Below, one piece after another: positions 4,849 through 23,862 of a DNA stretch of 43,966 nucleotides (position 1 is the stretch's first letter; each line of letters starts with the position of its first letter). This DNA is from an uncultured Actinomycetes bacterium (GTDB lineage Bacteria > Actinomycetota > Coriobacteriia > Coriobacteriales > Atopobiaceae). The stretch spans positions 1 through 43,966 of the forward strand of contig OMTG01000078.1 in NCBI GenBank assembly GCA_900313905.1. The letters run 5' to 3'. The notes beneath the pieces are model-generated. The model did not search any database, was not told the origin of the DNA, and saw nothing but the letters and a program-made list of their open reading frames with translations. The translations under genes were made by a program, and so were the position numbers.

Positions 4849-5724
4849 CTACTGATCCTTCAGGACTTCTTGGGCGCAGGAGATGAAGGCCTTGGCGGCA
4901 GGGGAGGCCTCTGCCAGCTCCGGAACGGCGATGCCGAGGCTGATGGACTGGGGAGGATCGAAGGGGATGGTCGCCACGGCGCCGTCCCACCTCTTGCTGA
5001 TGAGGGCATTGTTCAAGGAGATGCCGAGCCCTGCCTCCACCATCCGCCAGGTCGTATAGGCATCCTTCGTCGAGAAGCGGATGTCGGCCTCGATATGCTG
5101 CTCCTCGAAGAGCCGGTCGATATCGGTATCCTCTCCTGCCATGGTGATGATGAAAGGGTCCGTGGCAAGGCGGGAGAGCGGATAGGCATCTGCATGGGCA
5201 TAAGGGTGGTCTTCGGGGAGCCAGGCGAGGAGCTCGTCGTCGCGGAGCGGAATCCAGTCGCAGGGGACCGAAGGTGCGGGGACTGCCGAGACGCTGCAGT
5301 CGACCGAGCGCTCCGTGAGCCAGCGGGCGATCTCGGCATTCGTGCCCTGCCGGAGGATGACGCGCACACCGGGATGCTCATGCGAGAAGCGGGCAAGCAC
5401 CTGCGGGAGCCAGAGGGCGCCTGTGCTGTAGTAGCTCGAGACGGTCAGGGTGCCTGAGAGCATGCCGCAGATCTCGGCCCCCTGCTCTTCAGCCGCCCGC
5501 AGAGCCTGGGCCGCAGCGCGCATGGCGGGCAGCATATCGCGGCCATTGGCAGTGAGCTCTACACCGCGCTTGGTGCGAACCAGGAGCCTGAAGCCAAGCT
5601 CGGACTCGAGCGAATGGATCTGCCGGGTGATGCCAGGCTGGGTGTAGCCAAGCTCCTTGGCGGCGCGGGTGATCGAGCCATATTCAGCTGCGGTGAGGAA
5701 TGCTTCGCACTTGACGAGATCCAT
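4849..5724 (-). CDS. LysR-family regulator beside a threonine aldolase gene
   Basis: A 291-residue LysR-type transcriptional regulator. The N-terminal winged helix spans residues 1-60 (LVKCEAFLTAAEYGSITRAA, then LGYTQPGITRQIHSLE), followed by a linker helix and a periplasmic-binding-like effector domain from about 90 with the usual two lobes. The start at 5724 is preceded by GGAAGGAG at good spacing; the upstream in-frame ATGs fall inside the inverted repeat and lack one. It is transcribed away from the aldolase gene at 5863, the classical LysR arrangement, so it probably controls that gene and itself. The effector is unknown. Confidence 0.85.
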   Translation of the reverse strand: MDLVKCEAFLTAAEYGSITRAAKELGYTQPGITRQIHSLESELGFRLLVRTKRGVELTANGRDMLPAMRAAAQALRAAEEQGAEICGMLSGTLTVSSYYSTGALWLPQVLARFSHEHPGVRVILRQGTNAEIARWLTERSVDCSVSAVPAPSVPCDWIPLRDDELLAWLPEDHPYAHADAYPLSRLATDPFIITMAGEDTDIDRLFEEQHIEADIRFSTKDAYTTWRMVEAGLGISLNNALISKRWDGAVATIPFDPPQSISLGIAVPELAEASPAAKAFISCAQEVLKDQ

Positions 5725-11992: not shown

Positions 11993-12035
11993 GTCTGCCT
12001 CCCTGACAGGTGGGCCGGAGGACCAGCCCTAAAAT

Positions 12036-12078
12036 ATTGAGTACAATTATATTGTGTACAATTAATATAGGATGTCAA
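12036..12078 (-). promoter_or_regulatory. AT-rich promoter with a MarR-like operator
   Basis: On the minus strand a perfect TTGACA (12073-12078) is followed by an AT-rich region with -10-like hexamers around 12045-12055. Inside it ATTGTGTACAAT (12051-12062) is an ATTGT-N2-ACAAT palindrome, and GTACAATTA occurs twice in direct orientation (12041-12049 and 12056-12064). The operator overlaps the promoter of the flavoprotein gene, so repression by a MarR-like protein is plausible. The exact -10 is uncertain. Confidence 0.55.
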
Positions 12079-22074: not shown

Positions 22075-22143
22075 TTAACAAAATATATAGCTACCAGTTA
22101 ACAGAAAATATGGCCAGCAGCTAACCAGATGAAGGACCTGGAG
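22075..22143. repeat. Left iteron array (2 clear and 1 degenerate copy, 23-bp period)
   Basis: TTAACA begins at 22075 and 22098, and a degenerate CTAACC at 22121, each exactly 23 bases apart. Copies read TTAACAAAATATAT and TTAACAGAAAATAT followed by a 9-base spacer ending CAG. The second copy and the 50-60 bases after it resemble the end of the right array (from 23719), in the same orientation. Confidence 0.8.
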
Positions 22144-22167
22144 TTGACACGGCGGAGCGCATGCAGA

Positions 22168-22199
22168 ATGCCGGCAGGGCGTGGAAGCCCTGCCGGCAT
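22168..22199 (-). terminator. Hairpin downstream of the DUF4143 gene
   Basis: ATGCCGGCAGGGC and GCCCTGCCGGCAT form a perfect 13-base stem with a 6-base loop, 142 bases beyond the ATPase stop. It could end that transcript or be left over from an older gene. Confidence 0.5.
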
Positions 22200-22340
22200 C
22201 GGATGCTGATGGATGGCTGCGGCGAGCCTTGAATCTGCCTTATGCCAAATGACGATAGGAAACCATGCAGATTCCGGTCGGGAGGTCCGCTGCGTCAAAG
22301 ATGTGCTGCGCGGCGCTGACGAATGATGTCTCAGCGCGTC

Positions 22341-23600
22341 TCAGGGGCCAATCACATCGATGGGGGCAACCTGTATGCCTGTTTCCGTCACGTATGTGGG
22401 CGCTCCGAAACCGATGATGGCGAGCTTGGCGCGAGGTGGCCTGTTTCCGGCTGAAACCATCCTCTTCTCAACGGCAAGGAGGCTCTTTTCCGCTTCGGGG
22501 AGCTGGGCAGAGCCAAGCTTGATCTCGACGGGTATCCAAGCTCCTCCGGGGCTGGCGATGACAGCATCTGCCTCGAGATCGCTCGCATCATGGTAGTGAT
22601 AGACCTGCATGCCATTCGCTCGCGCGTAGACTATGAGGTCATGAAGCGCCAGAGATTCGAAGAGCAGACCAAGTGTCTTGAAATCCTCCAGCAGCGATTC
22701 GGTGGTGGCACCAATTGCGGCGGCAGCAAGCGACGGGTCGGCAAGATGGTGCTTGGATGCCTCTCGCAGCGCAACGGGAGATCTCATTGCAGGACTCCAA
22801 GCAGGTATGTTGCATACGAAGCTGAGCCGTTCCAGCAGTGAGATGTAGGCAGAGGCTGTCTGCCTCGTAACGGAATCTCCCATGTCAGCAACGAGCGTCT
22901 TGATGCTTGCGCGCGTCGATTCATTGCGACCGAGCGAGGCGATGACGGCCTTGACCTTCTCAGGGTTTCGCCTGGTGGCATCGACTTTTGACAGATCCTC
23001 TTCAGCGACTGCCTCGATATAGCCCTTTGCCATAAGAGATGCGGCATGGGTGGACATGTCGATGGCTGCTGGCCATCCACCTCGGACAATTCGGTCTGCG
23101 ATGCTTGCAGAATCCAGATGACCCATCAGACCCCGATAGGTTGTGCCAGAGAGGATGCCGGAAAGGCTCATGTCTCCGCTTGATACTCCGAGCTCGCAGA
23201 GCGTCATGGTGTCCATGCGGAGCCTTGCGAAGCGGCCTGCACCGCTGTGCATCGGCCTCATATCGTCGCGTGGCGTTGCGGACCCCGTGAAGATGAACTG
23301 GCCAGGCCTGCCCCCTCTGCGGTCGCATTCGAAACGGGCAGCATCCCAAAGCTTGGGGACCTCCTGCCACTCGTCGATCAGCCGCGGGGTTTCGCCAGAT
23401 ATTGCCAGAGCCGGATCCGTCTCTGCCCGCATCCGTGCTTCAAAGTCACGGGTTGGATCGGTGAGAAGCAGATGCGATTTTGCCCTTGTCTCGGTTGTCG
23501 TGGTTTTTCCGCACCATTTGGGTCCTTCGATAAGGACGGCACCGAAAGTATCGAGAAGCTCATCGAGTTCCTTCTCGGCGATTCGTGGAATGTATTTCAT
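22341..23600 (-). CDS. AAA_14/DUF4143 ATP-binding protein
   Basis: A 419-residue AAA-type ATPase fused to a C-terminal DUF4143 domain, a family very common in gut bacteria but of unknown function. Walker A is GPKWCGKTTT at 26-35; the Cys inside it is typical of the family. RLIDEWQ at 73-79 is Walker B. Sensor-like FIFTGSATP lies near 105. A winged-helix-like region occupies about 200-260, and the C-terminal DUF4143 part has a nuclease-like core (LEADAVIASPGGAWIPVEIK), the D-E-x-K arrangement seen in PD-(D/E)XK folds. GGGGGTG precedes the start at 23600. Its promoter contains an iteron, and similar iterons lie beyond its 3' end, so self-regulation or a repeat-dependent role is plausible. Confidence 0.85.
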   Translation of the reverse strand: MKYIPRIAEKELDELLDTFGAVLIEGPKWCGKTTTTETRAKSHLLLTDPTRDFEARMRAETDPALAISGETPRLIDEWQEVPKLWDAARFECDRRGGRPGQFIFTGSATPRDDMRPMHSGAGRFARLRMDTMTLCELGVSSGDMSLSGILSGTTYRGLMGHLDSASIADRIVRGGWPAAIDMSTHAASLMAKGYIEAVAEEDLSKVDATRRNPEKVKAVIASLGRNESTRASIKTLVADMGDSVTRQTASAYISLLERLSFVCNIPAWSPAMRSPVALREASKHHLADPSLAAAAIGATTESLLEDFKTLGLLFESLALHDLIVYARANGMQVYHYHDASDLEADAVIASPGGAWIPVEIKLGSAQLPEAEKSLLAVEKRMVSAGNRPPRAKLAIIGFGAPTYVTETGIQVAPIDVIGP

Positions 23601-23619
23601 GGAAACACCCCCATGCACC

Positions 23620-23649
23620 AGTATATTTAACAAAATATATGGAGTTCAA
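23620..23649 (-). promoter_or_regulatory. Promoter of the DUF4143 gene with an iteron inside
   Basis: On the minus strand TTGAAC (23644-23649) and TATACT (23620-23625) are separated by 18 bases, a good -35/-10 pair. Iteron copy 1 (TTAACAAAATATAT, 23627-23640) fills the spacer, the ideal place for a repressor. Confidence 0.6.
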
Positions 23650-23764
23650 TTAACAAAATATATACGATATAATTAACATAAAATATAAGTACTAATTAAC
23701 AGAATATAGAGCTTCCAGTTAACAGAAAATATTGCCTGCAGCCAGCCGGGTGCAGGGCTGGAGC
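23627..23764. repeat. Right iteron array (5 clear and 1 degenerate copy, 23-bp period)
   Basis: TTAACA starts at 23627, 23650, 23673, 23696 and 23719, an exact 23-base step each time; a sixth unit at 23742 is recognisable only by spacing and a few bases. Each unit is TTAACA followed by an AATATA-rich part and a 9-base variable spacer. The 23-base step is slightly over two helical turns. Confidence 0.9.
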
Positions 23765-23862
23765 CAGCACGATGTAGCTCGAGCAGAATGTCGATAGTCG
23801 AGCGCACTGGCGGAGGCCGGCTTCCACAAGGAGGATGCCGGGATGGATGGGGAAGATGCTGC

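What the first reader, a model, noticed from the sequence alone, without database searches (positions are those of the whole stretch)
22075..23764. DUF4143 ATPase gene bracketed by phased 23-bp iterons
Upstream of the gene TTAACA with an AATATA-rich tail recurs at 23627, 23650, 23673, 23696 and 23719: five units with an exact 23-base step. Beyond the 3' end the same unit occurs at 22075 and 22098 with the same step and orientation, and sequence similarity continues for another 50-60 bases. Such strict phasing suggests cooperative protein binding. The gene's own ATPase is the obvious candidate binder. No function is established for these iterons as far as I know, so this gene and its repeats may be a self-contained module: an autoregulated defence or maintenance factor, or a mobile cassette whose ends are the repeats.
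Basis: partly seen in the sequence, partly recalled or inferred. Interest (0 to 1): 0.85.

Follow-up and report, generated by a model that had tools for sequence, protein, structure and literature searches.

The report
Self-specific repeat arrays before DUF4143 genes
A very common but unstudied microbial gene, an ATPase joined to a nuclease and listed as a candidate virus-defence gene, is preceded in bacteria and archaea by its own private set of evenly spaced DNA repeats that evolve together with the protein, so each gene probably controls itself through its own DNA address.

Summary
The five upstream and two downstream 23-bp units are exactly where reported; their core occurs nowhere else in the 2.78-Mb genome. 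In the same order, 42% of 97 testable DUF4143 genes have three phased repeats upstream, against 0.5% of control windows. In 77 testable genes of the window's subfamily from many bacterial and archaeal groups it is 84%, against 2%. Spacing is quantised at 22-23 or 32-34 bp and follows two protein clades (3 changes on the tree; 13.6 with shuffled labels). Each gene has its own repeat sequence, and motif similarity tracks protein identity (Mantel rho 0.47, p about 0.001). In Bacteroidota the array lies just upstream of the promoter. In Collinsella one cassette recurs in several contexts, with homology running from the first iteron to about the stop codon. The protein is an AAA NTPase with a probable winged helix and conserved PD-(D/E)XK residues; PADLOC lists it as defence candidate PDC-S01. 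Best explanation: an autoregulated, horizontally moving NTPase-nuclease module that assembles on its own operator array. Binding and defence are untested. The downstream copies here look like a local duplication, not general element ends.

The parts
23627..23741 (+). upstream array: five 23-bp units TTAACA[AGT]AA[AT]ATA + spacer, exact 23-bp step; it lies upstream of the minus-strand gene, its last unit about 40 bp before the ATG
22341..23600 (-). AAA_14-DUF4143 gene (419 aa from the ATG at 23600): NTPase + probable winged helix + PD-(D/E)XK-type C-terminal domain; PADLOC PDC-S01
   Evidence: Pfam; PADLOC; model; Foldseek; residue conservation
23502..23525 (-). Walker A motif GPKWCGKT (residues 26-33)
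   Evidence: alignment; G31 and K32 conserved in all aligned proteins
22803..22964 (-). three-helix plus strand segment, residues 213-266, taken as the probable winged helix
   Evidence: secondary structure of the model; assignment is inference
22518..22658 (-). PD-(D/E)XK-type residues E315, E343, D345, E359, K361
22075..22120 (+). two further iterons, same step and strand, beyond the 3' end of the gene
22075..22173 (+). 99-bp direct repeat, a 77% copy of 23696-23793: the two distal iterons plus their distal flank
23696..23793 (+). the other copy of that direct repeat: distal part of the upstream array plus flank

Best explanation
Each AAA_14-DUF4143 (PDC-S01) gene is a self-contained module of one NTPase-nuclease plus a private operator array just upstream of its promoter. 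The protein's winged helix recognises the repeat; protomers or dimers line up one per unit at about two (22-23 bp) or three (32-34 bp) helical turns, depending on the protein clade, and control the promoter, keeping the nuclease scarce or parked on its own DNA until a trigger (presumably an invader) releases it. The array-plus-ORF moves between genomes as one unit, and the array diverges with the protein, so paralogues in one genome need not cross-talk. Shown: family-wide phased arrays, two spacing classes by clade, gene-private sequences, co-variation with the protein, promoter-adjacent position in Bacteroidota, genome-wide confinement of two arrays to their own loci, the shared unit in Collinsella, conserved NTPase and nuclease residues. 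Inferred: that the protein itself binds, that binding represses, and that the output is defence.
For: Upstream arrays in 42% of 97 testable order-level genes against 0.5% of controls and 84% of 77 genes from many phyla against 2.1%. Lags only 22-23 or 32-34 with few strays, split by clade with 3 changes against 13.6 shuffled. Motif similarity follows protein identity, rho 0.466 against a permutation maximum of 0.224, arrays almost always in the same orientation. Collinsella orthologues at 74-75% identity keep the core. The window core occurs only at this gene and the C30 motif only at its own locus apart from background. In Bacteroidota the promoter box TAnnTTTG lies between array and ATG at a fixed place. 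NTPase and nuclease residues conserved; DNA-binding AAA proteins (ORC1 with DNA, RuvB, DnaA) among the partial fold matches.
Against: No binding, expression or defence experiment exists. The promoter in the window was not located. Several DUF4143 clades show no detectable array. A separate regulator could bind the array, although no constant partner gene was seen. The array abuts the upstream side of the promoter rather than covering it, so activation is as possible as repression. Foldseek matches are partial (TMq 0.41 at best), and the winged-helix assignment rests on secondary structure and family knowledge.
Confidence: 0.65

Rival explanations
1. The array is a cis-acting mobility or homing site: the ATPase-nuclease acts on its own iterons to move or copy the array-plus-ORF unit, which would be a selfish element rather than a defence gene.
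For: Shared Collinsella unit with homology from the first iteron to about the stop codon in unrelated contexts; presence/absence at one site; an array left behind when the ORF was replaced; many diverse copies per genome; direct-repeat arrays around some genes in this genome.
Against: Arrays are on one side only in most genomes (6% downstream); no inverted ends, no clear target duplication; the array abuts the promoter and has no partner at the other end.
Confidence: 0.2
2. The array is an operator for another DNA-binding protein (a host regulator or a separate repressor), not for the ATPase.
For: Defence loci are known to be repressed through direct repeats by a small separate regulator (RptR, PMC12255303); a small HTH gene precedes the DUF4143 gene on Collinsella plasmids.
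Against: Each paralogue in one genome has a different array; motif and spacing follow the DUF4143 protein itself; the small HTH gene is absent at other loci such as L241 and the window.
Confidence: 0.1
3. The arrays serve replication or segregation, as plasmid iterons do next to rep genes.
For: Iterons at 2-3 helical turns directly upstream of a gene whose product resembles ORC1/DnaA-like AAA proteins in partial fold matches; some copies on plasmids.
Against: Most copies are chromosomal single genes, and each genome carries many different ones; no replicon features were seen; the conserved nuclease domain is not typical of such initiators.
Confidence: 0.03
4. The repeats are ordinary slippage minisatellites in AT-rich promoter regions.
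For: Some arrays are near-perfect tandem copies (L115, L202, L230).
Against: Most arrays conserve a core of about 14 bp and vary the spacer while keeping exact spacing; control windows show 0.5-2% and shuffles about 0; only two spacing values occur; enrichment is upstream only.
Confidence: 0.02

Closest known systems
PADLOC PDC-S01 (AAA_14-DUF4143; COG1373)
   Same: The protein is a member: all 23 aligned proteins match PDC-S01 models; ATPase fused to a PD-(D/E)XK-type domain, as described in PMC12988326.
   Different: No upstream repeat array is mentioned in the passages read; function unvalidated.
Iteron-regulated plasmid rep genes (from general knowledge)
   Same: Direct repeats spaced by about two helical turns directly upstream of the gene for a DNA-binding protein, presumed to bind them and control its own expression.
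   Different: Here the product is an AAA NTPase-nuclease, copies are mostly chromosomal and many per genome, spacing has a second value of 32-34 bp, and no replication role is indicated.
RptR and its direct repeats (PMC12255303)
   Different: RptR is a small separate regulator with 9-bp repeats and a 6-bp palindrome TAGCTA conserved across bacteria; here the sequence is private to each gene and the units are 23 or 33 bp apart.
BrickBuilt 23-nt minisatellite MITE of Porphyromonas gingivalis (PMC4596501)
   Same: 23-nt direct repeats with conserved and variable halves, intergenic, with promoter activity.
   Different: One shared element at 19 sites, with leader, tail and small inverted ends; no DUF4143 association described; sequences were not compared here.
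Archaeal Walker-type ATPase PABY2304 (PDB 2qen)
   Same: Best Foldseek match of the model (E 2e-5, TMq 0.41).
   Different: 14% identity over a partial alignment; repeats near those genes were not examined.

Membership tests
AAA_14-DUF4143 / PDC-S01 | AAA_14 and DUF4143 domains over the Pfam cut-offs | tested here: met
   98 and 37.5 bits against cut-offs 28.1 and 27
AAA_14-DUF4143 / PDC-S01 | match to PADLOC PDC-S01 models | tested here: met
   E 1.9e-58 for the window protein
AAA_14-DUF4143 / PDC-S01 | NTPase and PD-(D/E)XK-type residues present | tested here: met
AAA_14-DUF4143 / PDC-S01 | anti-phage activity | not testable with these tools
   needs phage challenge; reported as unvalidated in PMC12988326
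Autoregulated gene with own operator | site specific to the gene and co-evolving with its product | tested here: met
Autoregulated gene with own operator | site next to the gene's promoter | tested here: met
   Bacteroidota; promoter not located in the window itself
Autoregulated gene with own operator | product binds the site and changes its own transcription | not testable with these tools
   needs EMSA and a reporter assay
Transposon with terminal repeats | repeats at both ends | tested here: not met
   downstream arrays in about 6% of genes; own-motif copies in 4 of 41 genes with arrays
Transposon with terminal repeats | inverted ends or target-site duplication | tested here: inconclusive
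   none seen by eye at the Collinsella unit ends; no clean empty-site junction was available
Iteron plasmid replicon | supports replication of its own molecule | not testable with these tools
   most copies are chromosomal, several per genome

The most novel reading that the evidence does not exclude
AAA_14-DUF4143 genes are minimal selfish elements of one ORF plus an iteron array, whose NTPase-nuclease recognises its private array both to control itself and to drive its own spread or homing, and whose reputation as an abundant defence gene partly reflects that mobility.
Probability: 0.2. Interest if true: 0.92.

Novelty: new variant of a known kind. Interest (0 to 1): 0.77.

Why it matters
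PDC-S01 is reported as the fourth most common defence system in prokaryotes (PMC12988326), and experimental validation of most such candidates is pending. A cis-acting partner found across bacteria and archaea, private to each copy and evolving with the protein, gives a testable handle: what the protein binds, how many protomers assemble, and how it is kept silent. The many natural protein-array pairs also form an experiment in the evolution of DNA recognition with two fixed spacings.

Tried and rejected
PDB sequence search: no match. NCBIfam: none; PHROGs: one weak match in one of 23 members. Empty site through the SNF2-helicase neighbour in relatives failed, because the genus-mates lack it and the others are too distant. 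All-against-all BLAST of the first 100 loci showed homology largely restricted to the gene plus up to about 115 bp upstream, but too divergent to fix ends. BrickBuilt was considered as dispersed solo arrays of this kind; nothing read in that paper links it to DUF4143, and repeat sequences were not compared. The general 'repeats at both ends' model was dropped because own-motif downstream copies are confined to this genus in the data. Two apparent downstream arrays in other phyla (L171, L234) belong to a second DUF4143 gene that follows with its own array.

Full report
Observation. The core TTAACANAAWATA, even as a single unit, occurs only these seven times in the 2.78-Mb genome. The gene between the two groups (22341-23600, minus strand) is an AAA_14-DUF4143 protein.

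From one gene to a family. The genome has about a dozen DUF4143 genes, some broken. When each was oriented and its flanks read, several others proved to have phased repeats upstream too, each of a different sequence: GCGTAAAATACCGGTT (C34, six units, 23 bp), ACTTATAAATTATGG (C124, 23 bp), TACTCTGCAATTATGG (C102, 23 bp), GCAAATTGACAAATAT (C148, 33 bp), AAGTCCCTTGGAAAA (C11, 32-33 bp), GCTATTCGTGCA (C30, 33 bp) and, by eye, GATTATTCGC (C78). I then analysed 100 full-length genes of the genome and its order-level relatives. Requiring three exactly phased copies with at least 10 of 16 columns identical, 42% of 97 upstream regions pass, against 6% of downstream regions, 0.5% of 1533 control windows of the same loci and none of the shuffles (block shuffles of two bases). 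The lags of the positives are 22-23 (21 genes) or 32-34 (17 genes), with three strays. In 77 testable genes related to the window protein, from Bacteroidota, Bacillota, Spirochaetota, Actinomycetota, archaea and others, 84% pass a walk-based score that 2.1% of control windows reach, and 63 of 65 have lag 22-23. These 80 loci were chosen by similarity to the window's subfamily, so the figure holds for that subfamily.

Two spacing classes, two clades. On a tree of 117 proteins the 23-bp and 33-bp labels (41 genes) need only 3 changes; shuffled labels need 13.6 on average and never fewer than 10. Of the exceptions, one (L117 minus) shares an array with a divergently transcribed 33-bp-class gene, and two have 22-bp lags with weaker scores (L119, which lies in the 33-bp clade, and L109). 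The classes differ by about one helical turn.

Private and co-evolving. Among 78 genes of the 23-bp class, protein identity and cyclic motif similarity correlate (Mantel rho 0.466; best of 1000 permutations 0.224), and where motifs are alike they almost always lie in the same orientation relative to the gene. Collinsella orthologues 74-75% identical to the window protein keep the core (TTTGGTTAA against TTTTGTTAA in the window) at about 23-bp steps. The C30 motif occurs only at the C30 locus, apart from three scattered single hits with 2 mismatches, which is the level of the reversed control (3 hits).

Position. In 29 Bacteroidota genes the promoter box TAnnTTTG lies at -60 to -20 from the ATG in nearly all (25 hits in that bin), and the last repeat usually starts 30-60 bp before it, so the array abuts the upstream side of the promoter. 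Across the 23-bp class the last repeat starts a median 71 bp before the ATG, with a median of four units. The window promoter itself was not located.

Protein. AlphaFold2 gives a confident model (mean pLDDT 93). Partial Foldseek matches are the archaeal Walker-type ATPase 2qen, ORC1 bound to DNA, RuvB, DnaA, NLRs, and, probably for the C-terminal part, the Can2/Cdn1 nucleases. Walker A G31/K32, Walker B D76/E77 and the nuclease-type residues E315, E343, D345, E359 and K361 are conserved in 91-100% of 114-117 aligned proteins. All 23 proteins of alignment A1 match PADLOC PDC-S01 models. PMC12988326 ranks PDC-S01 fourth among defence systems across prokaryotes and says that validation is pending for most such candidates. 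A Thermus gene annotated AAA_14/DUF4143 (TT_P0211) was 6.6-fold up when a plasmid was present together with Argonaute, in the only paper of the library that names DUF4143; that is suggestive at most.

Mobility. In Collinsella a cassette 84-100% identical occurs in seven order-level genomes and on a plasmid. Between unrelated contexts homology starts at the first iteron, about 110 bp before the ATG, and stops at the stop codon or within about 30 bp of it. At one chromosomal site between a PTS IIB gene and an aldose epimerase gene, two species carry it, and in most of about 20 others the intergenic stretch is short and lacks it; these empty regions are too diverged to read an exact junction. At another site one species has array plus gene, and its relative has the same left flank and an intact array, but the ORF is replaced from the start codon on, with a different ATPase gene lying antiparallel. 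I saw no inverted ends, transposase or clear target duplication tied to the unit.

Downstream copies. In the window 22075-22173 is a 77% copy of 23696-23793, i.e. the two distal iterons with their distal flank. Own-motif copies downstream were found in 4 of 41 genes with arrays (window, C30, C148a, and L139 of the same genus), and by eye at C78. C30 has a third array beyond a serpin-like ORF. They are best read as local duplications.

Conclusion. The association, the two spacings, the privacy, the co-variation and the promoter position are shown. That the protein binds its own array, that this controls expression, and that the output is defence are inferences. I put autoregulation by self-binding at 0.65 and a mobility or homing role at 0.2. 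No description of such arrays turned up in the papers searched; subscription papers and preprints were not searched, so novelty is provisional.

Noticed in passing
G000 C51, C78, C148 (L029, L030, L027): Several DUF4143 genes of this genome are broken or reduced to remnants (split frames at C51 and C78; a C-terminal piece of about 108 aa at C148), some still next to repeats.
   Followed up: partly
L028:2090-5330 (G000 C30): Three arrays of one motif in the same direction: before the DUF4143 gene, after it, and beyond a serpin-like ORF; the third is preceded by sequence resembling the end of the DUF4143 gene.
   Followed up: partly
L296:175-1443 (G163): A 422-aa ATPase gene lies antiparallel where a related genome has the DUF4143 ORF; the four-iteron array remains as a solo array.
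   Followed up: partly
L117:3780-4054 (G013): Two divergently transcribed DUF4143 genes share one 33-bp array.
   Followed up: partly
L073, L077, L081 upstream regions: The last unit before the gene seems inverted (TACGTCCTTATTT ... AATAAGGACGTA), a possible different arrangement in one clade scored as having no array.
   Followed up: no
L022 (G000 C41), upstream of the DUF4143 gene: An inverted repeat (TGGAAAATCTGGA ... TCCAGATTTTTCA) instead of direct repeats.
   Followed up: no
window 12034-12064: Short tandem repeat of period 15 (ATATTGAGTACAATT, 2.1 copies) between ORFs.
   Followed up: no
L241:3800-3860 and 5340-5400: Repeat-like sequences (AAAGAGTGTCC...GAACGTC...AATGACT) flank the Collinsella cassette on both sides and recur in the genus.
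   Followed up: no
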